In this document: in pieces, positions 1,090 to 30,878 of the stretch
Numbering within the stretch: position 1 is the stretch's first letter
How the letters are laid out: each line of letters opens with the position of its first letter
Source of the DNA: a virus
Direction: 5' to 3' (one strand)
Length of the DNA: 64,000 nucleotides
IMG/VR virus record: IMGVR_UViG_3300025030_000097
Coordinates: 1-64,000 of that record
The notes under the pieces: model-generated
Database searches by the model: none
Told to the model about the DNA's origin: nothing
What the model saw: the letters and a program-made list of their open reading frames with translations, nothing else
Made by a program: the position numbers and the translations under genes

Positions 1090-1446
1090 ATGAAAAAGCA
1101 CATAAAAGTTAGTGCTAAATATAACAGAGATGGTGAAACTTTTACGTTGACTATTAAGGAAATGTCTCATCCTTCTGTATTTGATTTTGGAGGCGGTCAG
1201 CCAGAAGGTACCTCGGAGTACAGAGGTAGGATGTTTGTTCACGGTAACACTTTACTGGCTTTTAATGGAGCTACTTGTTACAGTGAGGATAAATTTGCCT
1301 TAGAAACTTGGAGAGCACCTAAAGAAGTAACCAAAGTGTTTGTGCTAACTTCCGAAGAATACAGCAACACGATGAAACTTCCTGTTAAATATTGGCCGGA
1401 TCTGAGAGAAGCTATTAAGGCTTATAATGAATTTTACTCTGAGTGA
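1090..1446 (+). CDS. EQSH-family paralog 1 (unknown function)
   Basis: A 118-residue member of the paralogous family that recurs through the first 31 kb. It has the N-terminal MKKHIKVSAKY strand, a diverged central motif (KEMSHPSVFDFGG in place of EQSH...FG) and the C-terminal AYNEFYSE helix. No signal peptide or membrane segment is visible. The alternation of short hydrophobic strands suggests a small beta-rich domain with a C-terminal helix; this is an inference. A GGTAATTACC dyad and AGGAG precede it. Function is unknown. Confidence 0.75.
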   Translation: MKKHIKVSAKYNRDGETFTLTIKEMSHPSVFDFGGGQPEGTSEYRGRMFVHGNTLLAFNGATCYSEDKFALETWRAPKEVTKVFVLTSEEYSNTMKLPVKYWPDLREAIKAYNEFYSE

Positions 1447-1465
1447 TTTTGAATAGGAGATTAAC

Positions 1466-1657
1466 ATGAAACAGAATACTAAAGACGAGGTAAAAGTCGT
1501 TAAGGTTATAAATTCTCGCGTTACTTTAAGGCATTGGTACGTGGCTAGAGAGATGGTCAAGAATTGGGACAGACTGCATTGGGAGAAGTGGTGTAGCAGT
1601 CCTTTGTGGAAAATACTTAACAGAAAATACAAAAAACTTATCTATAAGGAGAACTAA
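1466..1657 (+). CDS. Small basic hypothetical protein
   Basis: A 63-residue Lys/Trp-rich protein after an AGGAG site 9 bases upstream of the ATG. It includes HWYVAREMVKNWDRLHWEKW, a strongly amphipathic stretch. No known family is recognised. It lies in a run of small same-strand genes with 10-20 base gaps, so it is probably co-transcribed with the EQSH paralog before it. Confidence 0.6.
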   Translation: MKQNTKDEVKVVKVINSRVTLRHWYVAREMVKNWDRLHWEKWCSSPLWKILNRKYKKLIYKEN

Positions 1658-1658
1658 A

Positions 1659-1850
1659 ATGGTAGTAGTACTCAAACCAACAAGTAAGCGACTAAAACAG
1701 GTTATAAGGGAATTTGGTTCTGAGTGGCTGTTCATAGCAAGAAAATCAATGCAGTGTTTTGGTGGCAGGGAAGGCATTCAGATAAAATCAATGTGCGGTA
1801 AGCATACACGCAACGTCGAACTTTCAGATATTGACCAAAAGGAGGACTAA
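1659..1850 (+). CDS. Small hypothetical protein
   Basis: A 63-residue basic protein whose ATG follows AAGGAG and starts one base after the preceding stop region. Nothing in it is recognisable. Tight spacing on both sides and a good ribosome binding site support it as a real gene of the small-gene operon. Confidence 0.55.
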   Translation: MVVVLKPTSKRLKQVIREFGSEWLFIARKSMQCFGGREGIQIKSMCGKHTRNVELSDIDQKED

Positions 1851-1851
1851 A

Positions 1852-2283
1852 ATGGACAGATTCGATGATGCTAAAGTTGGCGATAAGGTTTACGACAGGG
1901 TGTATGGGTTTGGAGTGGTGCATCAATCTGTCGGAGACACCACTATAAAAATAGTCTTTGGTGATAGTGCTTTCTACGAAACATTTGTAGTAGACGGTCG
2001 GCGTTATCGCACAGCAGCAGAGCCAACACTCTTCTATGTCGATAATGACAACAAATACTCCGAAAAGAGGCCCATTCCGAAAGTACCTTGGGATAAAGTT
2101 CCGGTTAATACTAAGATTTTGGTTGGCACTGCTAAGAGATACCTCGCCAGTGATAAAAAATATTTTGGAGGAGGCACTACTTCTTGGTCAAGTTCAGAAG
2201 TCTGCTACCCGCTGCCAGATCATGCCGTATTAGCAGAAGAAATAACAATCGACGGCGTAGTTTACCCTATAGGTAGCAAATAA
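1852..2283 (+). CDS. Phage hypothetical protein with DxVYDxVYGxG-type N-terminus
   Basis: A 143-residue protein. The ATG at 1852 follows AAAGGAGGA; an earlier in-frame ATG at 1831 lies inside the previous gene and is less likely. The N-terminus (KVGDKVYDRVYGFGVV) resembles a small SH3-like beta-barrel found in many phage proteins of unknown role. The rest is beta-rich with Gly/Ser loops. No catalytic residues can be assigned. Confidence 0.65.
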   Translation: MDRFDDAKVGDKVYDRVYGFGVVHQSVGDTTIKIVFGDSAFYETFVVDGRRYRTAAEPTLFYVDNDNKYSEKRPIPKVPWDKVPVNTKILVGTAKRYLASDKKYFGGGTTSWSSSEVCYPLPDHAVLAEEITIDGVVYPIGSK

Positions 2284-2293
2284 GGAGACTAAA

Positions 2294-2617: not shown

Positions 2618-2655
2618 TGCTAGAGGTGCTGATAAACAAACTAAAGGAGACTAAA

Positions 2656-4020: not shown

Positions 4021-4022
4021 AA

Positions 4023-4175: not shown

Positions 4176-4177
4176 AA

Positions 4178-5098
4178 ATGAAACTAGCCGTGTCCAATCC
4201 AAACTTCAGTATAATTGTCCCTTCCGCGTGTAATGCAAAATGCTCTTTCTGTTTCTGGGAGGTTAAGGAAAAAATGCCTTCTCGAACTGACTACCTGAAA
4301 AAACTGAAAGATACCTTGGATCAATTACCTTCTGAATTCCAACAATGTAGCATTACCGGGGGCGAGCCAACTATGTGTGAGTATCTTTCGGATATTTTAA
4401 CACTAGTTCGCAAAAGGTTTGGCAAGGTAGTTTTGTCCTCAAACGGATACGATATTAAGGCAGAGCATCTATCAAAAATAGACCATTTGAACGTGAGCCG
4501 CCACCACTACATTCAAGCCGATAATATTAAGGTATTTGGCACTAAATCTGTAGCCAATGACTTAGAGCTAACCTGCACATGTTCCGCAGCAGAAGCTTAT
4601 GGGGTCGATGTTACCTTGAATTGTGTGTTGCCTGCAAAATTTGATGACGCGCAGTTTATCTACCAGTACCTGAAATTCTCCAAACTTATAGGTGCTCACG
4701 GAGTTTGCTTCAGAAAAGAACACTCTGATCTTTCTCCGCTGCCTGTTGAAACATTTTTCACGCAGAAAGCATTCAACCAGACTAGCTGCCCAGTTTGTTC
4801 GTCTCATTCCAAGTTCATAGATGGAGTAAAAACAACTTGGAGGTACAGTGTCAGAGAACCTTCAGTAGCCCTTAAAGGAGTCTACGAACTGGTAATGCAA
4901 CAAGATGGTAGAGTTACTTCTGACTGGGCCGGTAATACTGAAATTGAGTTTGGCAAGAAAGTTACTGAGGTAACTAAAGTAGCCAAGGCAAGTAGTTATG
5001 TAGGCAGTGGTTGCGGTTCATCTGGTTGTGGGGGTCCTGTCTATAAGCAAAGTTACTCTGGTTGCGGTAGGTTTGGCTTTTCTAGCTGCGGGCGATAA
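4178..5098 (+). CDS. Radical SAM enzyme with Cys/Gly-rich C-terminal tail
   Basis: A 306-residue radical SAM protein. The [4Fe-4S] cluster motif CX3CX2C is at C18/C22/C25 (ACNAKCSFCFW), the SAM-binding GGEP at residues 61-64, and later VVLSSNGY and LNCVLP fit the TIM-barrel core. A second Cys group (TCTC; CPVC) follows. The last 35 residues are unusual: repeated GCG, SGCGG and SCGR units that look like a maturation-peptide or metal-binding tail. Such a tail could be an auxiliary cluster site or a fused substrate. Its neighbours give no pathway. The exact reaction is unknown; the superfamily is secure. Confidence 0.85.
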   Translation: MKLAVSNPNFSIIVPSACNAKCSFCFWEVKEKMPSRTDYLKKLKDTLDQLPSEFQQCSITGGEPTMCEYLSDILTLVRKRFGKVVLSSNGYDIKAEHLSKIDHLNVSRHHYIQADNIKVFGTKSVANDLELTCTCSAAEAYGVDVTLNCVLPAKFDDAQFIYQYLKFSKLIGAHGVCFRKEHSDLSPLPVETFFTQKAFNQTSCPVCSSHSKFIDGVKTTWRYSVREPSVALKGVYELVMQQDGRVTSDWAGNTEIEFGKKVTEVTKVAKASSYVGSGCGSSGCGGPVYKQSYSGCGRFGFSSCGR

Positions 5099-5118
5099 AC
5101 TATAAAGGAGCCTAAAAA

Positions 5119-5726: not shown

Positions 5727-5765
5727 TTCAGACGCTAACTAAGACCCCAAAAGGAGAATCTTACA

Positions 5766-6562: not shown

Positions 6563-6567
6563 ATTTT

Positions 6568-7072: not shown

Positions 7073-7073
7073 A

Positions 7074-8123
7074 ATGTCTTTCGGAATATTTCTGAGGCAG
7101 AAGCTGGTGGAGGTTGTTAAGTCAGCCTCCACTGTAGTTTCAGAGTCGAAGGTTAATAAAGTAGTGAAGGAGGTTAAAGGAGAGTGGGTGCCTAAAGTCG
7201 GTGACTTAGTTGTGGCCAAAGGCGGGTATAAAATTAATACTTCAGAGGTTGATTGGGAAGGTATAGTGACAGACATTTCTAAGTCTAGCTCTGTGTACTT
7301 TTATGCACAAGGCATCGGCAGCAGTAGTAGAGGTGTTATGGTGAGTCCTAGCGGTGAAACCTGCTACATGCTACACACTTGCAACTTTGAACTTAAGAAG
7401 CCTGCACACGCTAAAGAGCAACCACCGCCTTGGGTAGAACCTACAAAGAAACAAGTAGAGCCTGAACCAAAAACTGACTACCACGTTTGCAAGCATGGAA
7501 GGACTTTTGGAGTCGATTTTGACGCCAGAGCGGATGTTTGTTACAGAAAATGCCACTACAAAAATCATGAAGCCTGTAAAGATGCCTACTGGAAACTTAA
7601 GAAGGAGGAAGAAAAAGAGCCTGAAAAGAAACATAAATGCTGTGCTGGAGGAACTTTTGGGGCTGATTTTGAAAACTATGGCATTTGTTACGAGAGGTGC
7701 AGCCCAGCTACTTATGCTGCTTGTGAGGAGGAGTTTGCAGGTTCGTGCGGAGGCAAAAATCTTAAAAAAGGAACTAAAAGCAAAGAAAACAAACCCAAAC
7801 AACAAAAAGGCAATAAGTTTATTAAATTGTCTGAGCCTGTTTACAACAGCAGCATAGGAGTAGTAACTTTCTTCGTCGAAGAACAGAGTCACACCTGCGA
7901 GGATTTTGGGAATAGCTATGGCGGTAGGCGTTTTGTTGCTTCTGACGGTTATGAGCTGCGGAGTGCTAGACAGCCTGGAGTTTATGATAAGGACCACTAT
8001 GTATATTTGAGGGGAGGGAATAATACTTGGGATCTTTCTAAAATAACCGTTTCTGAAAGTGAGTACAAACGTATAGTAAATGCTGTTACGGAGTATAATG
8101 AATATTATTTAGTGAATAAGTAG
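7074..8123 (+). CDS. Mosaic protein: Cys repeats plus C-terminal EQSH-family domain
   Basis: A 349-residue mosaic. Residues about 35-110 look like a beta-rich (SH3-like) domain (VGDLVVAKGGYKI...EGIVTDI). Residues about 138-172 and 188-220 are two copies of a Cys module (roughly C...G-T-FG-x-DF...CY-x-C...AC). A Lys-rich linker leads to an EQSH-family domain at about 247-345 with EEQSHTCEDFG, YLRGG and EYNEYY. The ATG at 7074 is 1 base after the previous stop. Function is unknown. The fusion indicates that the EQSH unit is an independently folding domain. Confidence 0.7.
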   Translation: MSFGIFLRQKLVEVVKSASTVVSESKVNKVVKEVKGEWVPKVGDLVVAKGGYKINTSEVDWEGIVTDISKSSSVYFYAQGIGSSSRGVMVSPSGETCYMLHTCNFELKKPAHAKEQPPPWVEPTKKQVEPEPKTDYHVCKHGRTFGVDFDARADVCYRKCHYKNHEACKDAYWKLKKEEEKEPEKKHKCCAGGTFGADFENYGICYERCSPATYAACEEEFAGSCGGKNLKKGTKSKENKPKQQKGNKFIKLSEPVYNSSIGVVTFFVEEQSHTCEDFGNSYGGRRFVASDGYELRSARQPGVYDKDHYVYLRGGNNTWDLSKITVSESEYKRIVNAVTEYNEYYLVNK

Positions 8124-8169: not shown

Positions 8170-9471
8170 ATGAAACACATCAAATTCACTGCTACACCCG
8201 TTGGGCCTAAATTTGATCAGGTAGAGGTTCAGATTGTGGAGCAGAGTCATATTCGAAATGAGTTTGGTATAAGTGGCTCTGATAGGTTTAAGGCTAACAA
8301 TGGAATGGAACTTCGTAGTATAGCCTGTCCTAAAATCTATAGCGATTATATTTGCGTCAGGGGCGATTGCACCTACCGTGATAACGACAAACTCATCTTC
8401 ACAACCTCTGAATACAACAAATTCAGGGAAGCTGTAGAGGAATACAACTCTTATTTTAAACAGAAACCCAAAAGCAAAAAGCCACAACGTCTTAGGGTTC
8501 ATGCGGAAGCAATTGGTCCGGATTTCAAAAACGTGTCTGTGGAGGTGGTTGAACAGAGTCATTTTGAGGGTCAGTTTGGTGAATGTCGGACTAATGGCGT
8601 GGGAGAGTTTATCTACGGAAAGGTTAGGTTGTGTTCTACACTAGGTGGAAGCGGGGTAAATATGGATAGCTTTATCCCTAGTAGATACAAAGACAAAGAC
8701 CTCATCGGAACATTCTACGTAGCTAACAAAAAAACCAAAGAGGACAAGGATAGTCTTAAAACTGTGGTTACTGTAGAAGTTTGGCAGGAGATTTTGAAGA
8801 CTGTTGAGGCTTTTAATAAGGAGTTCTGGACTGGAGAAGTAGAGGAAGAGGTTGCTGAGAAAGAGGTAAAGAAGCCTGATGTACCTAAGAAGCGGTGGTT
8901 TATTAGGACTGTTGATTTCGTACATAGTAATTACGCCACTAAAAAAGGAACTGTCGCAGAATTTATTTCATTAGGACACGGATGGGTGAACGTCAGACTG
9001 TCTAACGGAAAGTCAGAATCTTGGACCGAGAAGAACTGCAAAGAGATTTCTGAGGCTGAACTTGCTGAGCGGTTTGTTGAGGAGAAGCCTGAAGTTCAGA
9101 AAGATAGGTATTTTGTTCGTACGAAGAGTGTCACCTCACTTCAGAATTTCGCAGTGGGACTTGTAGGCAAGGTCGTAAAAGAATCCAACAGCGGAAGATC
9201 TGTTACGGTAGTTCTTCCTAACGGACAGACGAGTAATTGGCTTAAAACAAACTGCGTAGAAATCACTGAGATCCCTGTGGTAGAGAAGAAGAGGTGGTTT
9301 GTTAGGACTACACCTAATCACTATGCTTCTGCTAGTACTATCGCCTCCGTAGGGACTGTTGGGGAATTTGTCCTAAATGGTGGTAGCGGGGTACACGTAA
9401 AGGTACCTAGCGGTAAAACTGAATTTTGGGATGCCGAGAACTGCGTGGAGATTCAGGATCTTCCGCTTTGA
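8170..9471 (+). CDS. Tandem EQSH-family protein with three SH3-like repeats
   Basis: A 433-residue protein. EQSH domain one is at about residues 1-95 (MKHIKF...VEQSHIRNEFG...EEYNSYF). EQSH domain two is at about 103-215 (VVEQSHFEGQFG...EAFNKEFW). Three C-terminal repeats of about 55 residues follow, each starting (R/K)(W/Y)F(V/I)RT and ending N-C-(K/V)-E-I, with a G-x-V/T-x-x-V core like small SH3/KOW barrels. The ATG follows AAAGGAG. The SH3-like repeats suggest binding to protein, nucleic acid or cell wall. No catalytic site is evident. Confidence 0.75.
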   Translation: MKHIKFTATPVGPKFDQVEVQIVEQSHIRNEFGISGSDRFKANNGMELRSIACPKIYSDYICVRGDCTYRDNDKLIFTTSEYNKFREAVEEYNSYFKQKPKSKKPQRLRVHAEAIGPDFKNVSVEVVEQSHFEGQFGECRTNGVGEFIYGKVRLCSTLGGSGVNMDSFIPSRYKDKDLIGTFYVANKKTKEDKDSLKTVVTVEVWQEILKTVEAFNKEFWTGEVEEEVAEKEVKKPDVPKKRWFIRTVDFVHSNYATKKGTVAEFISLGHGWVNVRLSNGKSESWTEKNCKEISEAELAERFVEEKPEVQKDRYFVRTKSVTSLQNFAVGLVGKVVKESNSGRSVTVVLPNGQTSNWLKTNCVEITEIPVVEKKRWFVRTTPNHYASASTIASVGTVGEFVLNGGSGVHVKVPSGKTEFWDAENCVEIQDLPL

Positions 9472-9706: not shown

Positions 9707-10714
9707 TTAGGCAGCTTGTTGAACTGCCTGAGTAGAGTCATATGATATTGTGTCCTGATTGATACCGAATAATTCCCTATCTAGGATTTCTGGTATACTA
9801 TTTATCCGAGTATACGGAATTACTATTAATTTGATGTTATTTTTGAGTGCATAGTCGGCTTTTAACTGGTCAGATGCTTGTGTATACTCCAATTTCTTCT
9901 GCATAGCTTCAGGTGATTGATCTGAACCAAAACTACGAGGCAAGTAGTGTTGGGACCCGTTATATTCAATAATGACATTCATTTTCGGAATATAGAAATC
10001 ACACTTTAATTTACGGCCAGTCTTTAGGTTGATACAATCTTTAAACTTTTTCTCTCTCTTATATTCTATATTTTTTGAATTCAAGTAGCCAGCGACCTTT
10101 TCCTCCCCACGAGAAGATTTACAGAATGGGCACCCAGCTCTAGATAGAATGTGGTGGTCAAAACTCTGCATAAATACTCCATGAGAGGGGCAAACTATAG
10201 GTACTTTGTTCCTTGCTTTTTTATAAGTCTCTTTGTTGATTAAAGAGTAATCAAATTTAAACTCATGCACTATGTTAGAGGCCGCTATACGGTCTTCAAG
10301 TGAGGTAGTGGCTTTTGCTCGCTTGCATTCAGGACAACCACATGCTTCATTGACATGACCCATAGGTGTTTGGCTAAACTCACCGTGAATTGGACAGACT
10401 ATAATTACTTTGGTCTTGGTGTTTTTATATATAACCTTTGAGTAATCATAGGTGCCCTTATGAATTTTAGTCGCCCTTGCTACGAACGTCTCTAGTGAAG
10501 TATTTTTCGATAGATTCTCTCTAGCACAGGTAGGACAACCGCTACCTTTTAGGTGCCTCACAGCCCTAGGACTAAATTCTAAATTATGGATAGGACAAAT
10601 AATTATTGATTTAATTGCAGGCCCATGATATTCGAATTTAGAATAATCGTACTTAAAACCATGCACCTCGTTACATTTAGCAATGAATTCTTCTTGTGTT
10701 AATTTTTTAGACAT
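9707..10714 (-). CDS. Vsr-like homing endonuclease with zinc-finger repeats
   Basis: A 335-residue protein on the opposite strand to its neighbours. The N-terminal two thirds has three repeats, each of about 55-65 residues, of a treble-clef-like unit (YDYS..., CPIH or CPSH, then GCP-x-C). The C-terminal part has a PD-(D/E)XK/Vsr-like nuclease core: KCDFYIP, IIEYNGSQHY, then a strand LIVIPY. This architecture is known from phage-borne free-standing homing endonucleases. It interrupts the rightward gene order between the tandem EQSH gene and gltX and has its own orientation, as expected of a mobile insertion. Confidence 0.8.
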   Translation of the reverse strand: MSKKLTQEEFIAKCNEVHGFKYDYSKFEYHGPAIKSIIICPIHNLEFSPRAVRHLKGSGCPTCARENLSKNTSLETFVARATKIHKGTYDYSKVIYKNTKTKVIIVCPIHGEFSQTPMGHVNEACGCPECKRAKATTSLEDRIAASNIVHEFKFDYSLINKETYKKARNKVPIVCPSHGVFMQSFDHHILSRAGCPFCKSSRGEEKVAGYLNSKNIEYKREKKFKDCINLKTGRKLKCDFYIPKMNVIIEYNGSQHYLPRSFGSDQSPEAMQKKLEYTQASDQLKADYALKNNIKLIVIPYTRINSIPEILDRELFGINQDTISYDSTQAVQQAA

Positions 10715-12258: not shown

Positions 12259-12618
12259 ATGAAGAAGCATATTAAGATCAGAGCGGAGCTGGTTGATAAC
12301 AAAACTAGAGTCAAAATAACCATCCTGGAACAGTCTCACTTCCTAGACCACTTCGCAGGACGCAAAACAAGTTTTATAAATGAGACTCACGCATTCTGTC
12401 ACGGCAACCTCAGAATGGCTTCTCATGCCGGAAATCTTCCTAAATTCAGAATAGGCGGCCTAAACAGCGGAGTATTTAAGAAAAATGGCGTAGTAGACAA
12501 ACTCTATGTAGCCCATTTTCCTTCTCAGTTACCAGCCACTTTCACAGTTACTTTAAAAGATTACCCAGCAATAAAAAAGTGTATCGAAGCTTATAACTCA
12601 TACGAATTCACTAAATAA
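12259..12618 (+). CDS. EQSH-family paralog (unknown function)
   Basis: A 119-residue canonical member: MKKHIKIRAELVDNK, ILEQSHFLDHFAG, FCHGNLRMAS, then KKCIEAYNSYEF at the end. It follows gltX by 45 bases with a dyad between them and has an AGAGGAG site. It sits at the head of a cluster of very small genes. Its role is unknown. Confidence 0.75.
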   Translation: MKKHIKIRAELVDNKTRVKITILEQSHFLDHFAGRKTSFINETHAFCHGNLRMASHAGNLPKFRIGGLNSGVFKKNGVVDKLYVAHFPSQLPATFTVTLKDYPAIKKCIEAYNSYEFTK

Positions 12619-14000: not shown

Positions 14001-14015
14001 AGGGAGGTTATGGGT

Positions 14016-14384
14016 ATGAAAAGGCATCTGAAGGTTAGAGCTGAATTAGTAAGACCTGGCAATGAAGAGGTTAAGGTTACTATACTAGAGAAAGTTGCGG
14101 AGCCTAGTAAATTTAGTAAACGAGGAATGTCTCACCCAAGTCACCATTCAGGGGTGTTTAGGTATGAAGAAGTGCTTTTGATATCTACTAATTACTTAAG
14201 TAGGTCTAGTTACTCTGGCTTTAAGTATAACACCGGTTGTCAAGCTAACATGCACTACTTTGAGATAGGCCCAACTTCAACCCTAACCCTCCCAATAGAA
14301 GTGCGGCCAAAGATTAAAAAGGCTATCGAAGCGTATAATGAATGGGGTGCTGAAAATCATATAGAGGAGGTTAATACGGAATGA
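14016..14384 (+). CDS. EQSH-family paralog (diverged motif)
   Basis: A 122-residue member. The start at 14016 puts AGGGAGG 8 bases upstream and matches the family N-terminus (MKRHLKVRAEL); an ATG 6 bases earlier is too close to that site. The central motif is diverged and extended (ILEKVAEPSKF...GMSHPSHHSG), while the C-terminus keeps KKAIEAYNEWG. Its stop overlaps the next family member (ATGA), a tandem pair. Confidence 0.72.
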   Translation: MKRHLKVRAELVRPGNEEVKVTILEKVAEPSKFSKRGMSHPSHHSGVFRYEEVLLISTNYLSRSSYSGFKYNTGCQANMHYFEIGPTSTLTLPIEVRPKIKKAIEAYNEWGAENHIEEVNTE

Positions 14385-14671
14385 AACATTTAAAACTAAG
14401 AGCCAGACTCATTCCAAACTCCAAAGAAGCAATTGTTACTGTAGTTGAGCAGACACATGGAGGCGGTGCTTTTAGTGACCCGTATTTTGACTTCTTCGTC
14501 CACAAAGGATATAGAGTAAGTTCTAACCGCAGCTACGTAGTATGTATGGGAGCTAATACCCTGTGGCTCAGTGACGGACCTGGAGTAGAATTTAAAATAC
14601 AGCAACTACAATGGCCTAAAATAAAACAGTTAGTAGAAGCGTACAACGAGTGGGGAGCAACTCAACCTTAA
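14381..14671 (+). CDS. EQSH-family paralog (short form)
   Basis: A 96-residue member: MKHLKLRARL, VVEQTHGGGAFSD, IKQLVEAYNEWGATQP. It is coupled to the preceding paralog by a 4-base overlap and shows the shortest distance between the EQTH and AYNEW motifs. Function is unknown. Confidence 0.75.
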   Translation: MKHLKLRARLIPNSKEAIVTVVEQTHGGGAFSDPYFDFFVHKGYRVSSNRSYVVCMGANTLWLSDGPGVEFKIQQLQWPKIKQLVEAYNEWGATQP

Positions 14672-15718: not shown

Positions 15719-16063
15719 ATGCCGGATAATAAAGAAAGGAGGTGGTATGGTGAAAGGAAATGGATAAAGTATCGTGCTAGACTGACTGAGGATAGGAAGT
15801 CTGTGGCTGTTAATATTTTGGAACAGAGTCATAGGCATATGGAGTTTGGAAATACTTGCTTAGGGCACGAATTTACACATGAAGGGTACAGGTTAGGTAG
15901 TTATTCTTTCCCAGAGCAGATAAGAAATGACGCTACTTACTTGCAAGGAAATTTGAAAGATAGAGACGACACAACCCTCTACATGACCTTAGAAACGTAC
16001 CAGAAGTTCAAAGCTACAGTTCTAGCTTATAACAAGTATTTTAAAGGCGACTCAGAAGATTAA
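15719..16063 (+). CDS. EQSH-family paralog with N-terminal extension
   Basis: A 114-residue member: WIKYRARLTEDR, ILEQSHRHMEFGN, LQGN, FKATVLAYNKYF. About 12 residues precede the usual first strand. AGGAGG lies 7 bases upstream of the ATG, directly after a dyad. Function is unknown. Confidence 0.75.
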   Translation: MPDNKERRWYGERKWIKYRARLTEDRKSVAVNILEQSHRHMEFGNTCLGHEFTHEGYRLGSYSFPEQIRNDATYLQGNLKDRDDTTLYMTLETYQKFKATVLAYNKYFKGDSED

Positions 16064-16128: not shown

Positions 16129-16521
16129 ATGAAACACATTAAACTCGAAGTAGCAGCTAACCCGGAATTCAGCCAGACACTCATTCGCGTAGTTAGTCAG
16201 ACCAACGTAGGCAAAAAGTTCGGTAACATGAAAGGCGACCTGCGTAAGTTCAAAGCATCCAACGGCCTTACAATCGCCAGCAACCTGTTCCCTGCAAAAG
16301 ATGAGGACTTCAGGAACACTCAGACGATTTGGCTTCGGGGTCTTGGTTCGGAAGTTCAGAATGCTACTTGCCTTGCTCTCCCCAATGACGTAGCAGTTAA
16401 GCTTTGCGAGGCTGTCGAGGAGTATAATGAGTACTATACCCAGGCTAATATCAACGCCAGAGTTCGTGCCAAGCGTGAAGCCGAAGCCCTACGCAGTGGT
16501 CGTGTTGAGTACGTTGGGTAA
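16129..16521 (+). CDS. EQSH-family paralog with Arg/Ala-rich tail (A)
   Basis: A 130-residue member with MKHIKLEVAANPEF, VVSQTNVGKKFGN (diverged motif), FKASNGLTIAS, IWLRGLG and EEYNEYY. A helical basic extension follows (NINARVRAKREAEALRSG) ending EYVG. Codons are GC-rich compared with neighbours (CGT, CTC, AAC), suggesting high expression. It forms a close pair with the 16634 gene, with which it shares the tail type. Confidence 0.75.
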   Translation: MKHIKLEVAANPEFSQTLIRVVSQTNVGKKFGNMKGDLRKFKASNGLTIASNLFPAKDEDFRNTQTIWLRGLGSEVQNATCLALPNDVAVKLCEAVEEYNEYYTQANINARVRAKREAEALRSGRVEYVG

Positions 16522-16561: not shown

Positions 16562-16633
16562 ATTTTCACTATTTCCGTTAACCCTCTCAACTTCTAAAAG
16601 AGGTTGATACAAACATCCATGGAGGATATAAAA

Positions 16634-17095
16634 ATGAAACACATCAACGCTAAAGTAATGATTCTGCCGGAATTTAACAAAGGTCTGCTTAAAATCACCG
16701 GCCAGACCCACATCAGCACTGCCTTCGGTAACTCTGATGACGGCAAAACCTTCACAGCTACTAACGGCATTACTCTCGGAAGTAACCGTCGTGTCGCTAG
16801 GGATGCTGACGAGGTAAACACCATCTGGCTGCGTGGTACTGATACTTCTAAAAATGACAACTCGCTTGCCATTCCGGTGAAACGTCTCGGTAAAGTTGTC
16901 GATGCTATTAAGGAGTATAATGAGTACTATTCGCAGAGTCGTATTAACGAAAGGGTACGTCTTAAGCGTGCAGCAGAAGCCGAAGCAGCGCGTCAAGCAC
17001 TTATCGAAGCAGTTCGTCAGGCTGAACTCGCAAGGCAAGCTGAACTGGCTCGTCGTGCTGTTACCTTCTCTTCCTGCACGTTCATCGTAGGTTAA
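16634..17095 (+). CDS. EQSH-family paralog with Arg/Ala-rich tail (B)
   Basis: A 153-residue member. The start at 16634 follows GGAGGAT; upstream in-frame codons to 16604 are not needed and the family begins MKHI. The core has ITGQTHISTAFGN, FTATNGITLGS, IWLRGTD and KEYNEYY. The tail is a long helical Arg/Ala/Gln/Glu segment of about 45 residues (RQAELARQAELARR) ending SSCTFIVG. Codon use is GC-rich, like the 16129 gene. The tail may mediate oligomerisation or nucleic-acid contact; this is inferred from composition only. Confidence 0.75.
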   Translation: MKHINAKVMILPEFNKGLLKITGQTHISTAFGNSDDGKTFTATNGITLGSNRRVARDADEVNTIWLRGTDTSKNDNSLAIPVKRLGKVVDAIKEYNEYYSQSRINERVRLKRAAEAEAARQALIEAVRQAELARQAELARRAVTFSSCTFIVG

Positions 17096-17102: not shown

Positions 17103-17438
17103 GTGCCTCCGCGAGAGCATAGGCACATAAAGTACAGAGCTGAATTGTTGAGTTGTAGGAGTCGGGTTAAAGTCACGGTCCTTGAACAAACCCACAGGGA
17201 CCGTGACTTTGCTTTACCGGAGGATGGTATAGACAGATACTCAGATGGTGTGAGTTTTGTACACGAGAATTTTATACTTGGAAGCTGGTCTTATCCAGAG
17301 TTTTTAAGTGGTAGTGACTGGGTGGCTGTGAGAGGTGGTTACAAAGGAGAAGACCACAAACCCATAACATTCCCAACTCTACAATCTTACAACGATTTTA
17401 AAGCTGCTGTGCTTGCCTACAATGAGAGGTATAAGTAA
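17103..17438 (+). CDS. EQSH-family paralog with internal inverted repeat
   Basis: A 111-residue member starting with GTG, 7 bases after the previous stop, without a clear Shine-Dalgarno sequence and so probably coupled. Motifs are HRHIKYRAELL, VLEQTHRDRDFAL, FVHENFILGSW, AVRGGY and AVLAYNERYK. A perfect 13-bp inverted repeat (17169-17210) spans the codons of the EQTH motif. Confidence 0.72.
   Translation: MPPREHRHIKYRAELLSCRSRVKVTVLEQTHRDRDFALPEDGIDRYSDGVSFVHENFILGSWSYPEFLSGSDWVAVRGGYKGEDHKPITFPTLQSYNDFKAAVLAYNERYK
17169..17210 (+). repeat. 13-bp perfect inverted repeat inside a coding sequence
   Basis: Arms 17169-17181 (AAAGTCACGGTCC) and 17198-17210 (GGACCGTGACTTT) with a 16-base loop, inside an EQSH-family gene. 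In mRNA it would form a stable stem across the EQTH codons. The other paralogs I compared by eye do not show it. Confidence 0.65.
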
Positions 17439-22081: not shown

Positions 22082-22900
22082 ATGGATGAGAATAGCAAGC
22101 AGGGAGGTGAGGTGATTGAGAGTGTGGATCTAGGTAATACCAATTTAGAGCCTAAGCACAGGGAGAATTCATCTAAAGAATTATTTCAAAGAGACCCAGC
22201 AAGGTATTGGTACATTGAAGGAATGAGAGACGAGATAGAATTACTGTACGAAGAGGCAGCTACTAAATACACTGCGGCGTACACTCAGGCAATTAGGGAA
22301 GGTAGGTCTTCTGCGTTACCTTATAAATGGGAAGCTATGCGGTGTATAGAATTTGCAGCAATTTACAAAGGTTTGATGGATGAGTGGGCCGCTACTAAAA
22401 ATATTGGCCGGATGATTGACGAGAATCAGCACATGGTTCACTGGTACGATGAGAAATCAGTAGTGCCAAAAGAATTACTTGACGTGTACAAGAAAAAGGT
22501 TCCTGCGGGATTTCTATATAACGTAGTAATATATAACAAAGAAAATAAACAATGCCGGTTTATTCAATCGCTAGATTATCATAAGGACTCTGATCCGCTA
22601 ATGGACAGGGAGTATGTTGCGTATCCTGGAGGTTTTGTTCAGGCAAATGTGTATATCAAAGACCCTGAAGTTATCTTTCACAAGTGGATGTTAACCTCAA
22701 ATAAACTTAACGACACCTACGACTTTAGGAATGCAGTTAAGAGAAGCATTAGACTGAGGTACTTGCAAATGCCTGAAGCACTTAGACAAGAAATGCACAA
22801 GAGCAGCGTGTATAAAAAGTATGTGGCCCCTGCTATTGGGAATCGTAGTGTGGGTAGTTTGTTCGACGACTTTGTTGCATACAAGGCAGGGTTAGTATGA
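22082..22900 (+). CDS. Hypothetical protein, 272 residues
   Basis: The ATG follows AAGGAG. The protein has an acidic Asn/Glu-rich first 40 residues, then helical (EGMRDEIELLYEEAATKYTAAYTQAI) and mixed regions with several Tyr/Trp. There is no motif I can tie to a family. It overlaps the next EQSH paralog by 4 bases (ATGA). Confidence 0.6.
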   Translation: MDENSKQGGEVIESVDLGNTNLEPKHRENSSKELFQRDPARYWYIEGMRDEIELLYEEAATKYTAAYTQAIREGRSSALPYKWEAMRCIEFAAIYKGLMDEWAATKNIGRMIDENQHMVHWYDEKSVVPKELLDVYKKKVPAGFLYNVVIYNKENKQCRFIQSLDYHKDSDPLMDREYVAYPGGFVQANVYIKDPEVIFHKWMLTSNKLNDTYDFRNAVKRSIRLRYLQMPEALRQEMHKSSVYKKYVAPAIGNRSVGSLFDDFVAYKAGLV

Positions 22901-23220
22901 AAAAGTACCTTAAAGTTCGCGGAGAGTTGATGTACCCAGACAACAAATTCGTTCGCATGACGGTGCTTAAAAATAGTCATGAAGGGCTGGAGTTTGGTGG
23001 GAATGATCCAGCACTCATGTCTCACGTGTTCAGCTTTAAAAGGGTAAAGTTAAGGGCTATTGCTACGGCAAGATTTAAATTTTCTACCACCGGAGATAAA
23101 AGACCAGTATCTGTAACTCTCGGCAATCCCATAAGCGGCTCTATCCTAATACCTATAGAGTACTGGAAAGAAGTTAAAGAAGCTGTCCTAGCCTACAACG
23201 AATGGGGGAAATTTCAATGA
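22897..23220 (+). CDS. EQSH-family paralog (diverged)
   Basis: A 107-residue member: MKKYLKVRGELMY, VLKNSHEGLEFGG (EQSH reduced to KNSH), KLRAIA, then VKEAVLAYNEWGKF. It overlaps both neighbours by 4 bases, forming a coupled pair with the next family member. Confidence 0.73.
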   Translation: MKKYLKVRGELMYPDNKFVRMTVLKNSHEGLEFGGNDPALMSHVFSFKRVKLRAIATARFKFSTTGDKRPVSVTLGNPISGSILIPIEYWKEVKEAVLAYNEWGKFQ

Positions 23221-23732
23221 AACATTTAAAACTGCGTGCTGAATTGGATAAGAAAGATAAGACTTTTTGTTTTGTGGAGGTAGTTGAGCAGACACATAGG
23301 AGATTAGACTTTGGAGTTAATTTTAATGGAGCCGGTTCTTTTGTTTGTGGTGAGATTATGTTGTTGTCTTGGCGAGAGCCTGTTTGGTGGGATAACCAGT
23401 TAGGAGGAACGTACAGACTTTACTTGAGAGGTAGAGACGTGGACTATGACAAACGCAAAGTTAGAGTCCCTACAAACATGTGGCATAAAATAAAAGCCGC
23501 TGTTTTGGCTTACAATGAATTTTATTCTGGCGAGGACGGAGGGAAGAAAGAGGTTAGGGTACAAGAGAAGATTGGAGTGTCTGTTAAAACTACCGACGAA
23601 TGGAAGAGTATAGTACTAGCACAGTATGTGGAGGCGTTAGAGAAAGAAATTATATACGGTAGGCCAGAAATAGTAGGCACCTCCGTGAGCTTATTCGGTA
23701 CTGACTACTTGGTTACAACTAATGGCGACTAA
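23217..23732 (+). CDS. EQSH-family paralog with C-terminal extension
   Basis: A 171-residue member: MKHLKLRAELDK, VVEQTHRRLDFGV, YLRGRD, KIKAAVLAYNEFY at about residue 105. A 65-residue extension (EKIGVSVKTTDEWKSIVLAQYV...) is not found in other members. The start at 23217 overlaps the previous stop as ATGA. Function is unknown. Confidence 0.74.
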   Translation: MKHLKLRAELDKKDKTFCFVEVVEQTHRRLDFGVNFNGAGSFVCGEIMLLSWREPVWWDNQLGGTYRLYLRGRDVDYDKRKVRVPTNMWHKIKAAVLAYNEFYSGEDGGKKEVRVQEKIGVSVKTTDEWKSIVLAQYVEALEKEIIYGRPEIVGTSVSLFGTDYLVTTNGD

Positions 23733-26201: not shown

Positions 26202-26224
26202 TGAGGTAGCTAAACAGTTAAATA

Positions 26225-26234
26225 GGTAATTACC
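26225..26234. promoter_or_regulatory. GGTAATTACC dyad, copy 10
   Basis: Perfect palindrome in AATAGGTAATTACCTAAAAAGG, 16 bases before the Prs-like gene. Confidence 0.8.
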
Positions 26235-26250
26235 TAAAAAGGAGAACTAA

Positions 26251-27051
26251 ATGATCTTTATAGACGGGAAGTTAGTACAATTCGGAATGTTTCCTAATAA
26301 GGAATCTAACCTGAACTTTAACAACGTAGGATTCCACACACACAGCGTTATCACCTTAAAGTTTGAAAGTGACCTAGACCTGTTCAATCTCTACATCCTT
26401 AAGAGCTACATGGACGAAAACGGCTGTAGAAGTCCGTACCTAAAAATACTTTACATGCCTTACAGCAGGATGGATAGGAGGAATGAATTCTATACCTTCA
26501 ATCTAAAGTATGTAAGCAATTTTATCAACAGTATGAACTTTGCACAGGTAGAGATATTTGACGCACACTCAGACGTTACTTCTGCGTTGGTTGATAGGTG
26601 CATTGACAGAAGTAATATTCCATATCTGTTTTCTAAATTTCAGAAAGAAGTTGGCACTGAAAATACGGTTATTATGTATCCCGACGCTGGTGCCCAGAAA
26701 AGGTACGAAAGGCACTTTGCATATCCCTCTGTAGTTGGCAAGAAAGTTAGGAGCTTCGGAGACGGGAAGATTTTATCCTATGAAATTGCCGGAGACGCTG
26801 CTGGCAAAAATGTTGTTATTGTGGATGATCTATGCTCTAGAGGCGGTACTTTCATGGGCGCGGCAAGTGCTTTGAAAGATGTAGGAGCAAAAGATTTGTA
26901 TCTCATTGTAAGCCACTGTGAGAACACAATTTTAGAAGGTGATGTACTGAGTTCTGGTCTGTTCAAAAAAGTTTACACAACAAACAGTATAATCTCTGAG
27001 TCCAAAGCTACTGACTCTTTCGCTATCCTTAACATTTATGGAGGTAAATAA
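26251..27051 (+). CDS. Ribose-phosphate pyrophosphokinase-like protein (Prs or ADP-ribose pyrophosphate synthetase)
   Basis: A 266-residue phosphoribosyltransferase-fold protein, shorter than cellular PRPP synthases of about 315. It has MPYSRMDRR near residue 70, the DAHSD motif around residue 110, VIMYPDAGAQKRY, and the PRPP-binding loop VVIVDDLCSRGGT near residue 195. The family makes PRPP from ribose-5-phosphate and ATP. A phage branch (Adps of NARP1) instead pyrophosphorylates ADP-ribose. The NAMPT-like gene starts 2 bases downstream, so the two enzymes probably act in sequence. AAGGAG and a dyad precede it. Confidence 0.85.
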   Translation: MIFIDGKLVQFGMFPNKESNLNFNNVGFHTHSVITLKFESDLDLFNLYILKSYMDENGCRSPYLKILYMPYSRMDRRNEFYTFNLKYVSNFINSMNFAQVEIFDAHSDVTSALVDRCIDRSNIPYLFSKFQKEVGTENTVIMYPDAGAQKRYERHFAYPSVVGKKVRSFGDGKILSYEIAGDAAGKNVVIVDDLCSRGGTFMGAASALKDVGAKDLYLIVSHCENTILEGDVLSSGLFKKVYTTNSIISESKATDSFAILNIYGGK

Positions 27052-27053
27052 CT

Positions 27054-28670
27054 ATGAAAACTAATTTTAAAGTTCCTGCTACGTTGATCTGTGATTTCTA
27101 CAAAATTTCTCACAGAGCACAATACCCAGTTAAAACTGAAAAGGTCTATAGCACATGGATTCCTAGGACCAGCAGAATTACTTTCGTAGACAAAGTTGCT
27201 GCCTTTGGGTTCCAGGCATTCATCAAAAAGTATCTTATCGAATACTTTAACGACAACTTCTTCAGCCGCCCTTTGGAGGATGTGGTAGACGAGTATAGCA
27301 GGGTAGTTAAGTACTGCCTCGGAGATAATAATCCAGACACCTCTCACATTGAAGCACTTCACTCTTTAGGTTATCTTCCGATTCTTATTAAAGCAGTTCC
27401 TGAAGGCACTTTAGTTCCTGTTCGGGTGCCTATGCTGACCATTGAAAATACCCACGAAGACTTTGGGTGGCTTACCAACTACCTAGAGACTATCGCTTCC
27501 TGTGAACTTTGGCAGAGTGCTACGAGTGCAACCCTAGCTCTTGAGTACAGGAAAATTTTGGATAAGTATGCCACGTTGACCTCTGACATTCCTGAGTTTG
27601 TTGACTTCCAAGGGCACGATTTCTCTATGCGAGGGATGAGTTCTTTGGAGTCTGCTATAACTTCTGGTATGGGGCATTTGCTGTCTTTTGCAGGAACCGA
27701 CACAATCCCTGCTATTTTGGGACTTGAAAATTACTACAACGCTAATATTGAAAATGAACTTGTGGGTTGTTCAGTCCCGGCGACCGAACACAGCATAGCT
27801 TCATGTGGCGGTTCTAGTTCTTTAGAAGAGGAAGCTACTTTTAGGCGTTTGATTACAGAAGTCCACCCTTCGGGTATCGTCTCTTTGGTTTCTGATACAT
27901 GGGACCTTTGGAATGTCCTTACAAATATCCTGCCGAATCTTAAAGAAGTTATTAATGCTAGAGACGGCAAAGTAGTTATCCGACCTGACTCTGGTGATCC
28001 TGTAGATATCATTTGTGGTGTGTCTTACTCTGAGGTTTTTGACTTGGATGACGATAGCCTGATGGGTTCTCCTGATCGCGTTGTTAAATGTCTGGAAGAT
28101 GGAAAATTTTATAAGATAACTTCCTACGATACTGGTTGGACTACTAAATTTGAATGTAAAGAAATTTCTGAGGCTTCTGTGAAGGGGGTCGTAGAACTGC
28201 TTTATGAAACCTTCGGAGGGACTGTTAATAGCAAAGGGTTTATCCAATTAAGTGATAAAGTGGGGGCTATTTACGGAGACTCTATCACACTTGAGAGGGC
28301 AGAAAATATTTGTAATCGTCTCATGGATAAAGGATTTGCCTCTACCAACATTGTGCTAGGCATTGGGTCGTACACTTACCAGTATAACACTAGGGACACT
28401 TTCGGGTTCGCTATGAAAGCTACTCATTGTGTTATTAATGGAGTTGAGAAAAATATATTTAAAGATCCGATCACAGATGATGGAACTAAAAAATCTCTTA
28501 CTGGACGTTGTGTTGTACGAAACATTGACGGAGTGTTGGTAGCTACTGATGGTCTGTCTGAATTAGAAGAATACGCGGCGCTTGATAACGTGCTTCAGCC
28601 TATTTTCTGCAACGGAGTTTTGTTGGTAGAAACTTCACTTAAAGAAATCAGAGAGCGAATCAAACAATGA
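27054..28670 (+). CDS. nadV: Nicotinamide phosphoribosyltransferase-like protein (NAMPT/NadV)
   Basis: A 538-residue protein close to full-length NAMPT. Visible segments are ICDFYKISHRAQYP, FQGHDFSMRGMSS, SFAGTDTIPAI, SVPATEHSIASCGG, SLVSDTWDLWNVL, VVIRPDSGDPV, GAIYGDSITLERA, and FGFAMKATHCVINGVEKNIFKDPITD. NAMPT joins nicotinamide to PRPP to make NMN. Paired with the Prs-like protein it gives either NMN salvage or, if the pair uses ADP-ribose pyrophosphate, direct NAD+ synthesis. I see no NMN adenylyltransferase in the window. It is followed by two EQSH paralogs. Confidence 0.9.
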   Translation: MKTNFKVPATLICDFYKISHRAQYPVKTEKVYSTWIPRTSRITFVDKVAAFGFQAFIKKYLIEYFNDNFFSRPLEDVVDEYSRVVKYCLGDNNPDTSHIEALHSLGYLPILIKAVPEGTLVPVRVPMLTIENTHEDFGWLTNYLETIASCELWQSATSATLALEYRKILDKYATLTSDIPEFVDFQGHDFSMRGMSSLESAITSGMGHLLSFAGTDTIPAILGLENYYNANIENELVGCSVPATEHSIASCGGSSSLEEEATFRRLITEVHPSGIVSLVSDTWDLWNVLTNILPNLKEVINARDGKVVIRPDSGDPVDIICGVSYSEVFDLDDDSLMGSPDRVVKCLEDGKFYKITSYDTGWTTKFECKEISEASVKGVVELLYETFGGTVNSKGFIQLSDKVGAIYGDSITLERAENICNRLMDKGFASTNIVLGIGSYTYQYNTRDTFGFAMKATHCVINGVEKNIFKDPITDDGTKKSLTGRCVVRNIDGVLVATDGLSELEEYAALDNVLQPIFCNGVLLVETSLKEIRERIKQ

Positions 28671-28682
28671 GGAGGTGGTACA

Positions 28683-29057
28683 ATGAAGCACCTTAAAATA
28701 CGGGCAGAGTACAGACCTGCCACAAAAGACGTAGAAGTGACTTTACTAGAGCAGTCACATTTCGGTAATGATTTCGGTAGGATAGAAGATGCTTTTACGA
28801 GGAATCTCGGGGAACCTTGCGTATTTAAGCACGAAGGAGTAGCAATTTATAGCCATACCGCTTATAATACACACCAAACATATTTTTTCAAAAATAAGTA
28901 TCCAGACCCAATTAATAAAATAACCACTTGGCTTTGCATAGGAGCTAGTGCCTCAAAGTTTGAACGAACCAAAGTAGAAAACTCTGTGCCGATTGGTGAA
29001 TGGGCAGCCTTGAAAGCAGCTATTGAAGCCTACAACGAATGGGGAGCTAACCAATGA
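28683..29057 (+). CDS. EQSH-family paralog
   Basis: A 124-residue canonical member: MKHLKIRAEYRP, LLEQSHFGNDFGR, FKHEGVAIYS, then ALKAAIEAYNEWGANQ. AGGAGG precedes the ATG. The stop overlaps the next member (ATGA), so the two are a tandem pair after nadV. Confidence 0.76.
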   Translation: MKHLKIRAEYRPATKDVEVTLLEQSHFGNDFGRIEDAFTRNLGEPCVFKHEGVAIYSHTAYNTHQTYFFKNKYPDPINKITTWLCIGASASKFERTKVENSVPIGEWAALKAAIEAYNEWGANQ

Positions 29058-29401
29058 AACATTTAAAAATTAGAGCGGAGCTTGTAGGTTTTAAAAGAGA
29101 CCTGGTGAAAATAACCATTCTAGAACAGACCCACTTCTTTAAAGAATTTGGTAATGTTACAGACAAAATGGCAGGTTCTGCTTTTATTCACGGAGAAGGG
29201 CTTTTGCACAGTGATGGAGAAGAGCCAGCATACAGCGGTAAGAACATATCCGTCCATGACAGTAACTACTATTACTGGCTTTTTGTTAACGGTCAAACAC
29301 ACCACAAAGGCGATGTTGGTGAACCTATAACACTAGAGACTTGGGCAGTACTGAAAGAAACTGTGAAGGCTTACAACGAATGGGGAGCTAATCAACCTTA
29401 G
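29054..29401 (+). CDS. EQSH-family paralog
   Basis: A 115-residue canonical member: MKHLKIRAELVGFK, ILEQTHFFKEFGN, FIHGEGLLHSDG, LFVNG and KETVKAYNEWGANQP. It lies between its tandem partner and rtcB. Function is unknown. Confidence 0.76.
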   Translation: MKHLKIRAELVGFKRDLVKITILEQTHFFKEFGNVTDKMAGSAFIHGEGLLHSDGEEPAYSGKNISVHDSNYYYWLFVNGQTHHKGDVGEPITLETWAVLKETVKAYNEWGANQP

Positions 29402-29414
29402 AGGAGAAACTACT

Positions 29415-30518
29415 ATGTCGATTTTAGATAAATTTGCTTCACTTATCCCGCTTGAAGATGTAGAAGAGGGCGCTAAACAACAGATTTACAACATCCTGAA
29501 ACTTGATTGTTTAAAGAAACTTGCATTGATGCCAGATGCCCACCAAGGTTATGATATGCCCATTGGCGGGGTGGCTTTGCTGGATGGATTTATCTCAGCT
29601 AGCTTTGTCGGACTTGATTTGGGCTGCGGCGTATGCCATATAGCTACTGAAGAAGGTGCAGAAGACTACTCAAAAGATGATTTACAACACATTTACAAGA
29701 CTATCCACAAGACTATACCGACAGGATTTTCTTCACATTATCACTCTAAAGATTATCTTCCTAAGTTCAAGTCTGCGGTTCTTGATAAACAGACCACCGA
29801 CAGAATAGCCGAGAAGGTTGACTTTCAGTTAGGAACGTTAGGCGGTGGGAACCACTTCATAGAAATCGGAAGTAACAGAAAAGGCAACCTAGCAGTAACT
29901 ATCCACTCTGGTTCTAGGAATGTGGGGCATACTATCGGCGGGGCTTATATGAAGATGGGCCGTATGTTTGAACTTTCTTCGGAACTAGGTCAATCCTACC
30001 TGAGAGATATGAACTACGCTCTTGACTGGGCTTTGGAAAACAGAATGCAAATGATGCGGAAGGTTTTAGAAGCTGTTGGGATTAGTAATAAAAATATAAC
30101 GGTAGTTTTGAAGGACGTTATAAATGAGAACCACAACCACGCTGTAGTTACTTCTGAAGGTGTTTTGCATCGTAAGGGAGCTACTCCTGCTGATTTGGGC
30201 CAACTTGGTATTATTCCAGCTAACATGAGAGACGGAGTTTATATTACTAGAGGTTTAGGTAATACCGAATTTTTGTCATCAGCTAGTCACGGTTGCGGAA
30301 GACTTATGGGAAGGAACGTAGCTAAGAAATCTCTAGACTACGATGAATTCGTAACTCAGATGGAAGGTATTGTATGTTCTACTGACAGAAGCATTTTAGA
30401 TGAGGCTCCAAATGCCTATAAAGATGTTAACTATGTGCTTGATGCTCAAGTCGGTAGAACTGTAGAAGTTGTTGATTTCATTAAGCCTTTGCTAAATATT
30501 AAAGCAGGAGGAGACTAA
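29415..30518 (+). CDS. rtcB: RtcB-type RNA ligase
   Basis: A 367-residue RtcB homologue that joins 2',3'-cyclic phosphate (or 3'-phosphate) and 5'-OH RNA ends with GTP and Mn. Visible motifs: MPDAHQGYDMPIGG, GLDLGCGVC (metal-binding Asp/Cys), LGTLGGGNHFIEIG, VTIHSGSRNVGH, NHNHAV, and near the C-terminus SASHGCGRLMGR, where the His is the expected guanylylation site. Length matches short bacterial RtcB forms. In a phage it fits repair of tRNAs cut by host anticodon nucleases. It has EQSH paralogs on both sides. Confidence 0.92.
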   Translation: MSILDKFASLIPLEDVEEGAKQQIYNILKLDCLKKLALMPDAHQGYDMPIGGVALLDGFISASFVGLDLGCGVCHIATEEGAEDYSKDDLQHIYKTIHKTIPTGFSSHYHSKDYLPKFKSAVLDKQTTDRIAEKVDFQLGTLGGGNHFIEIGSNRKGNLAVTIHSGSRNVGHTIGGAYMKMGRMFELSSELGQSYLRDMNYALDWALENRMQMMRKVLEAVGISNKNITVVLKDVINENHNHAVVTSEGVLHRKGATPADLGQLGIIPANMRDGVYITRGLGNTEFLSSASHGCGRLMGRNVAKKSLDYDEFVTQMEGIVCSTDRSILDEAPNAYKDVNYVLDAQVGRTVEVVDFIKPLLNIKAGGD

Positions 30519-30521
30519 CCA

Positions 30522-30878
30522 ATGAGCAGACACTTAAAAATTAAAGCGGAATTAAATCCAGACAAAAAGACAGCAACTCTAACGTGGATTTCTCAAACTC
30601 ATTTTGGAAGTTATTTTGGAAACAGTAGGCCGGTTGGTTGTATTAATGACGACTATTTTAGCTCTAGCTGTTCTTTTAACGTTGGTGTTAATAGTCTAGT
30701 AAGTCATCCTAATAATACATTTAGAAAAGGCCAACTTTCACATAATGAAATCAAAAATAGAAAATGGTTTTTAGTGCCTAGCCAGAATGTGCCGTGGAAT
30801 AGAACCACAACTATCGCAGTAGAAGACTGGCCTTGGATTAAAAAACTGGTGGAATCTTACAATGAATTTTACAAATAA
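30522..30878 (+). CDS. EQSH-family paralog (diverged motif)
   Basis: A 118-residue member: MSRHLKIKAELNPDK, WISQTHFGSYFGN, then IKKLVESYNEFYK. It is the last recognised copy of the family on the right and starts 3 bases after rtcB; the AGGAGG site lies in the end of rtcB. Function is unknown. Confidence 0.74.
   Translation: MSRHLKIKAELNPDKKTATLTWISQTHFGSYFGNSRPVGCINDDYFSSSCSFNVGVNSLVSHPNNTFRKGQLSHNEIKNRKWFLVPSQNVPWNRTTTIAVEDWPWIKKLVESYNEFYK

What the first reader, a model, noticed from the sequence alone, without database searches (positions are those of the whole stretch)
1090..30878. A 16-domain paralogous protein family (EQSH/AYNE family)
At least 15 genes encode one domain of about 110 residues, most with MKH(L/I)K(I/L)RAEL at the start, EQ(S/T)H...FG in the middle and AYNE(W/F/Y) at the end. 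Members are at 1090, 7074 (C-terminal), 8170 (two), 12259, 14016, 14381, 15719, 16129, 16634, 17103, 22897, 23217, 28683, 29054 and 30522. I know no family with this signature, and such expansion in one phage is unusual. Conservation of the same short motifs despite strong divergence elsewhere suggests a shared ligand or partner. Members flank gltX, nadV and rtcB, which may be meaningful or incidental.
Basis: partly seen in the sequence, partly recalled or inferred. Interest (0 to 1): 0.85.

Follow-up and report, generated by a model that had tools for sequence, protein, structure and literature searches.

The report
Expanded phage protein family, function unknown
A group of large uncultured phages carries about 15 to 29 copies of one small, undescribed protein domain whose two ends stay constant while its middle differs strongly even between sister phages, which suggests a reusable scaffold for hitting many bacterial targets, although no target is known.

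Summary
The window encodes 16 homologous domains in 15 ORFs. An HMM built only from other phages' members recovers all 16 (E 1e-16 or better; no hits on shuffled ORFs). Related contigs bring the family to 79 domains in five contigs of three lineages (29 in one phage). All lie on the replication/metabolism strand and none among structural genes. No family in Pfam, PHROGs, NCBIfam or PADLOC fits, and no solved structure. AlphaFold gives a confident model (pLDDT 96.6: seven strands plus a C-terminal helix). Only three uncharacterised phage proteins share it. New findings: (1) between sister phages the gene ends match neighbouring genes in divergence, but the middle is about 4.5 times more divergent at synonymous sites, so middles look exchanged; (2) the 'AYNEWGA' ending partly encodes a ribosome-binding site for an overlapping next copy; (3) one subfamily carries a conserved C-terminal tail, C-x-(F/V/Y)-(I/V)-(I/V/L)-G; (4) nadV and rtcB come and go around the copies, so that adjacency is incidental. 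Best reading: a constant-frame, variable-middle scaffold of host-interaction proteins. The function is inferred, not shown. The nearest analogue in strategy, not in homology, is the poxvirus immune-evasion families.

The parts
1090..1446 (+). family member 1 (one domain)
   Evidence: HMM
7812..8111 (+). family domain at the C-terminus of ORF 7074-8123, after a Cys-rich, possibly zinc-binding region
   Evidence: HMM
8170..8460 (+). first domain of two-domain ORF 8170-9471
   Evidence: HMM
8482..8829 (+). second domain of ORF 8170-9471
   Evidence: HMM; groups with G003_2443 domain 2, support 99/93
8830..9468 (+). three repeats of about 55 aa fused behind the two domains (SH3-like by eye, no Pfam match)
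   Evidence: sequence; found otherwise only in sister G002
12259..12618 (+). family member, directly downstream of gltX
   Evidence: HMM
14010..14384 (+). family member; its 3' end overlaps the next copy (ATGA)
   Evidence: HMM; overlap
14381..14671 (+). family member
   Evidence: HMM
15719..16063 (+). family member used for the high-confidence fold model
   Evidence: AF2 pLDDT 96.6, pTM 0.88
16129..16521 (+). slowly evolving member with reduced tail (VEYVG)
   Evidence: dN/dS 0.09
16604..17095 (+). slowly evolving member with low-complexity linker and C-terminal tail CTFIVG (ATG at 16634)
17075..17092 (+). codons of the conserved C-terminal tail CTFIVG
17103..17438 (+). family member
   Evidence: HMM
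22897..23220 (+). family member; overlaps the next copy (ATGA)
23204..23209 (+). Shine-Dalgarno-like GGGGGA inside the codons of NEWGK, 5' of the ATG at 23217
23217..23732 (+). family member with unrelated C-terminal extension
   Evidence: HMM
28683..29057 (+). family member; overlaps the next copy
29041..29046 (+). Shine-Dalgarno-like GGGGAG inside the codons of NEWGA, 5' of the ATG at 29054
29054..29401 (+). family member; first fold model
   Evidence: AF2 pLDDT 87.7, pTM 0.84
30522..30878 (+). family member; middle 45-70% identical to sister G002 while its ends are 90-100%

Best explanation
The family is a diversified set of small host-interaction proteins, probably made early in infection. 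Each uses the same fold: a constant frame (strands 1-2 and the C-terminal helix) holds a variable middle (strands 3-7 and loops) that would bind a different host or host-defence molecule in each copy. New specificities would arise by tandem duplication and by replacement of the middle through recombination anchored in the conserved ends. Tandem copies are laid out as coupled, overlapping genes. One slowly evolving subfamily carries a C-terminal tail that probably docks to something common. Shown: homology, fold prediction, expansion, position, constant ends with divergent middles, ribosome-binding-site-like sequences embedded in copy overlaps, tail conservation. Inferred: early expression, binding to host targets, a role in takeover or counter-defence, recombination as the cause of the divergent middles.
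For: 79 domains in five contigs of three lineages, all on the early/replication strand and none in the late module. Median dN/dS is 0.236 against 0.082 for other early genes, p=0.001. Ends dS 0.28 and dN 0.04, middle dS 1.26 and dN 0.28, ratio 4.5 (95% 3.2-6.5); neighbouring small genes 1.24 (0.94-1.66). At identical, well-aligned residues codons differ at 14% in ends and 37% in middles, p=8.6e-11. G001 has an extra copy (4507-4866) whose 56-nt junction repeat is 98% identical to the next one, while its middle resembles no member. Residues at the best motif positions are missing in some members, against a shared catalytic site. The neighbourhood holds prs-nadV, rtcB, a CCA-adding enzyme and gltX; phage NAD+ restoration is a known counter-defence (PMC12774641).
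Against: No target, phenotype or expression data exist. dN/dS stays below 1 everywhere. The high dS of the middles could partly come from alignment of indel-rich stretches. Paralog ends are not homogenised at DNA level in general (same-codon rates near expectation), so frequent exchange between copies is not shown. The two tail-bearing members evolve slowly, so not all members are diversifying.
Confidence: 0.45

Rival explanations
1. Nucleic-acid-binding regulators: basic single-domain proteins that bind RNA or DNA, for example to control early transcripts or host mRNA.
For: Median domain pI 9.1 against 6.4 for large ORFs; strong N-terminal Lys/His/Arg; neighbours act on RNA (rtcB, CCA enzyme, gltX).
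Against: pI varies from 4.6 to 10 and several window members are neutral or acidic (5.3-7.1), so charge is not conserved. No match to any known nucleic-acid-binding fold above noise.
Confidence: 0.2
2. A shared-partner or assembly family: the constant ends bind one common partner or each other, so paralogs form mixed complexes or cover one phage structure, with the tailed members as the hub.
For: Ends conserved across paralogs with 25% mean column identity; common C-terminal tail in a slowly evolving subfamily; tandem double-domain forms at corresponding positions in three lineages.
Against: Conserved ends form strands 1-2 and the C-terminal helix, so a structural core explains them too; no interaction was tested.
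Confidence: 0.2
3. Enzymes: EQ(S/T)H with His3, Lys5 and Asn104 form an active site, with each paralog acting on a different substrate.
For: Polar near-invariant positions.
Against: Members without the Q or H exist (14016 EKVA, 16129 SQTN); no fold match to an enzyme family above noise.
Confidence: 0.08
4. Mostly neutral gene-family growth: tandem duplication with relaxed constraint and no specific host-interaction role.
For: Copy number differs (16, 15, 15, 29) and tandem arrays are present.
Against: Cross-lineage groups persist with support, ORFs stay open, dN/dS is well below 1, core residues are kept in 79 copies.
Confidence: 0.07

Closest known systems
Poxvirus Immune Evasion (PIE) domain superfamily and poxvirus Bcl-2-like family (PMC4584292, PMC2907574)
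   Same: One virus-specific or virus-adapted fold expanded into many diverged paralogs; PIE has a beta-sandwich not seen in cellular proteins.
   Different: Viruses of animals, immune modulators with tested targets; no sequence or fold link found here. An analogy of strategy only.
Uncharacterised phage proteins A0A8S5R5N7, A0A8S5T4K4, A0A8D9C9H8 in BFVD
   Same: Foldseek E 1.2e-4, 3.8e-4 and 1.3e-3, probability 1.00, TM 0.67-0.72 to the query, about 20% identity: likely the same fold family.
   Different: Other phages; copy number and gene context there could not be read here; no function.
T7 gp1.2-like dGTPase inhibitors (phrog_2949) and DNA mimic Arn (PF22134)
   Same: Small early phage host-takeover or counter-defence proteins; weak hits from one or two members.
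   Different: Best E 0.0035 and 0.058, only 1-2 of 79 members: not membership.
Anti-defence gene neighbourhoods with NAD+ restoration or RNA repair (prs-nadV, rtcB)
   Same: Family members are interleaved with these genes.
   Different: nadV and rtcB are each absent from some relatives that keep the family.

Membership tests
Any described protein family (Pfam, PHROGs, NCBIfam, PADLOC) | profile score above cut-off in most members | tested here: not met
   79 members scanned; at most 2 match any one family, best E about 0.003
Families with solved structures (PDB) | sequence relationship of the profile to a PDB chain | tested here: not met
   A2: no hit up to E 10; A4: one chance hit at E 1.1
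Known folds in the PDB | significant structural match over most of the domain | tested here: inconclusive
   first model: no Foldseek E below 0.17; compact model: best Z 3.6, Psb28 Z 3.3 over 69 residues at 3.4 A
PH-like fold | seven-stranded sheet pair capped by a C-terminal helix, significant alignment to PH domains | tested here: inconclusive
   order of elements agrees, but PH-containing chains reach only Z 3.2 over 47 residues or Z 2.5
Unnamed phage fold family of BFVD A0A8S5R5N7 and relatives | same predicted fold over the whole domain | tested here: met
   E 1.2e-4, TM 0.72, rmsd 2.3
T7 gp1.2-like dGTPase inhibitors (phrog_2949) | profile match across members | tested here: not met
   1-2 members, E 0.0035-0.03
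DNA mimic Arn (PF22134) | acidic DNA-mimicking surface and profile match | tested here: not met
   one member, E 0.058; domains mostly basic
Virion structural proteins | encoded within the late structural module | tested here: not met
   0 of 79 domains lie in the opposite-strand late module holding terminase, portal, tape measure and tail genes
Host-takeover or counter-defence proteins (works like) | binds and alters a host or defence target | not testable with these tools
   no interaction data

The most novel reading that the evidence does not exclude
A phage-specific diversification system: a novel fold kept as constant frame, with exchangeable middles, held in dispersed loci of overlapping tandem genes whose junctions act as recombination anchors, giving each phage a personal set of 15-29 host-targeting proteins, a phage counterpart of the poxvirus scaffold families.
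Probability: 0.3. Interest if true: 0.82.

Novelty: new variant of a known kind. Interest (0 to 1): 0.6.

Why it matters
Fifteen to 29 diverged copies of one domain in a 105-113 kb phage point to a large investment in whatever it does. If the copies bind different host or defence proteins, they form a ready panel of natural binders and possible counter-defence proteins, and the constant-end, variable-middle layout would be a way for phages to diversify effectors that can be tested directly. The predicted fold has no clear solved match, so one crystal structure would define a family.

Tried and rejected
Sequence searches in 50,697 phage and 72,556 plasmid records with divergent members gave only chance matches. 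Two scans of 84,980 bacterial and archaeal genomes found no relative, though the method reaches only relatives that keep the patterns used. PDB fold searches gave only weak hits. I considered that the conserved ends are homogenised at DNA level by gene conversion: rejected as a general rule, because synonymous codons of paralog ends match near the rate expected from codon usage; only the G001 tandem shows a near-identical junction. Positive selection alone as cause of the divergent middles is disfavoured because synonymous change at identical residues is raised too. A virion role is disfavoured by position. A catalytic role for EQSH is disfavoured by members lacking it. Papers on such families in phages: none found in the held library. 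The metagenome number was not found in any held paper, so the habitat and host are unknown.
Full report
OBSERVATION. The window encodes 16 copies of one domain in 15 ORFs at the coordinates given. One member as query finds 11 places in the record, itself included, and the profile finds all 16. As an independent test, an HMM built only from members of two other phage lineages (44 domains) finds exactly these 16 in the window with i-E from 4.6e-27 to 1.5e-16 and no hit among five-fold shuffled ORFs. Pairwise identity is low (15-41%). The exact strings EQ(S/T)H and AYNE occur in 10 and 8 of the 16, so the motifs are tendencies; near-invariant over 79 domains are Asn104, Phe31, Tyr103, and less strictly Lys5 and His26.

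WHERE ELSE. IMG/VR scans found the family only in contigs of four metagenome numbers: G002 (105.7 kb, 15 domains), G001 (59 kb, fragment, 4), G003 (113.1 kb, 29) and G004 (113.3 kb, 15), plus smaller pieces of the G004 virus. Scans with two conserved backbone proteins (a 525-aa zinc-ribbon-like protein and the DNA ligase) returned only these contigs, so every backbone relative found carries the family. Late genes of G003 include terminase, portal, tape measure and a lambda J-like tail fibre protein: tailed phages, probably siphovirus-like. All family genes of a genome lie on one strand, that of the replication genes, and none in the late module.

AGE AND POSITION. A maximum-likelihood tree is poorly resolved overall (116 columns) but has supported groups that cross lineages and often keep gene position: for example 28683 with a G003 copy (99/94), the second domain of 8170 with that of G003_2443 (99/93), 1090 with a G003 copy (96/82, long branch), and the tailed group (100/92). 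Much of the expansion therefore predates the split of the lineages; G003 added further tandem copies. Copies lie around gltX, the DNA ligase and the 525-aa gene in all three lineages. rtcB is present in the window, G002 and G004 but not in G001 or G003; nadV in the window, G001 and G004 but not in G002 or G003 (all these records may be fragments). In the window and G002 rtcB lies between two copies that directly overlap in G001. So nadV and rtcB are changing neighbours.

FOLD. With the family alignment AlphaFold2 models member 29054 at pLDDT 87.7 and the compact member 15719 at pLDDT 96.6, pTM 0.88: seven strands, mostly short in the middle, and a C-terminal helix. Foldseek against BFVD gives three uncharacterised phage proteins at E 1.2e-4 to 1.3e-3, TM 0.67-0.72. 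PDB matches are at noise level. Sequence libraries give nothing. The order of elements recalls a PH domain but the alignment does not support it.

CONSTANT ENDS, VARIABLE MIDDLE. Between the window and sister G002, family genes have median dN 0.135 and dN/dS 0.236 against 0.034 and 0.082 in 26 other early genes (p 0.0002 and 0.001). The excess lies in the middle: ends dS 0.28, dN 0.04; middle dS 1.26, dN 0.28. The dS ratio is 4.5 (95% 3.2-6.5), against 1.24 (0.94-1.66) in neighbouring small genes and 1.05 in the two tailed members (this set also includes three window-G001 pairs). Restricting to identical, well-aligned residues, codons differ at 14% of sites in ends and 37% in middles (p 8.6e-11), against 17% and 23% in other genes. 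The middles thus look older than the rest of the genome, as expected if they were replaced by recombination, and not only faster in amino-acid change. This is an inference; residual misalignment may add to it. In G001 an extra copy is flanked by a 56-nt junction repeat 98% identical to the next, with a middle unlike any other member, which fits insertion of a whole copy at a junction. Paralog ends in general are not alike at synonymous sites, so the conserved motifs are kept at protein level.

OVERLAPPING COPIES. In tandem copies the stop overlaps the next start (ATGA), and the codons for N-E-W-G-A/E read AAY-GAR-TGG-GGA-G.., giving GGGGAG at ribosome-binding distance from the next ATG. Of 25 genes with W at that place 16 overlap a following start, against 3 of 50 others (Fisher p 1.4e-7). 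Another class ends YFKE, encoding AAGGAG. This explains part of the 'AYNE(W/F/Y)' ending; A-Y-N itself is also kept in copies without such a neighbour.

TAIL. Nine ORFs end in C-[STA]-[FVY]-[IV]-[IVL]-G after low-complexity linkers of varying length; all nine are family members, from all three lineages, out of 2118 mechanical ORFs. A looser pattern gives 11 of 11. Relatedness of these members explains their grouping, but survival of the last six residues behind unconserved linkers suggests a function, probably docking. In the window and G002 the two-domain protein at the corresponding place lacks the tail and has extra repeats instead.

MECHANISM. I consider a diversified host-interaction scaffold most likely (0.45). 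Shown: homology, expansion, module position, predicted fold, constant ends and divergent middles, overlapping copies, tail. Inferred: early expression, target binding, takeover or counter-defence. The strategy resembles poxvirus PIE and Bcl-2-like families (PMC4584292, PMC2907574; abstracts), without any evidence of relationship. Main rivals are nucleic-acid binding (basic median pI, but charge not conserved) and a shared-partner or assembly role.

VERDICT.

Noticed in passing
window 32849-38839: About 6 kb (including the DnaB-like helicase gene) is identical in all ORFs to sister G002, while most flanking genes differ at 20-50% of synonymous sites: a very recent exchange or an assembly artefact.
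   Followed up: partly
window 43641-46181 and 36483-37853: Core replication genes are swapped between sisters: the DNA polymerase is 96% identical to G001 but 39% to G002, while the helicase is identical to G002 but 37% to G001.
   Followed up: no
window 4178-5095: Radical SAM protein with a Cys/Gly-rich C-terminal tail (GSGCGSSGCGG...); no close relative in the four related phages, only a weak match in G004.
   Followed up: partly
window 26251-28670: prs-nadV pair for NAD+ salvage; nadV is present in G001 and G004 but absent from G002 and G003.
   Followed up: partly
window 58457-60442; L057 15573-18572: The anaerobic ribonucleotide reductase gene is 661 codons in the window but 999 in G002: possible intein or other insertion in G002.
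   Followed up: no
window 9707-10714 and 35048-36370, minus strand: Lone reverse-strand genes that look like homing endonucleases (the first matches DUF723 and weakly a treble-clef domain) inside forward-strand operons.
   Followed up: no
window 16604-17095 and relatives in G003, G004: Conserved C-terminal tail C-x-(F/V/Y)-(I/V)-(I/V/L)-G; its role is unexplained.
   Followed up: partly
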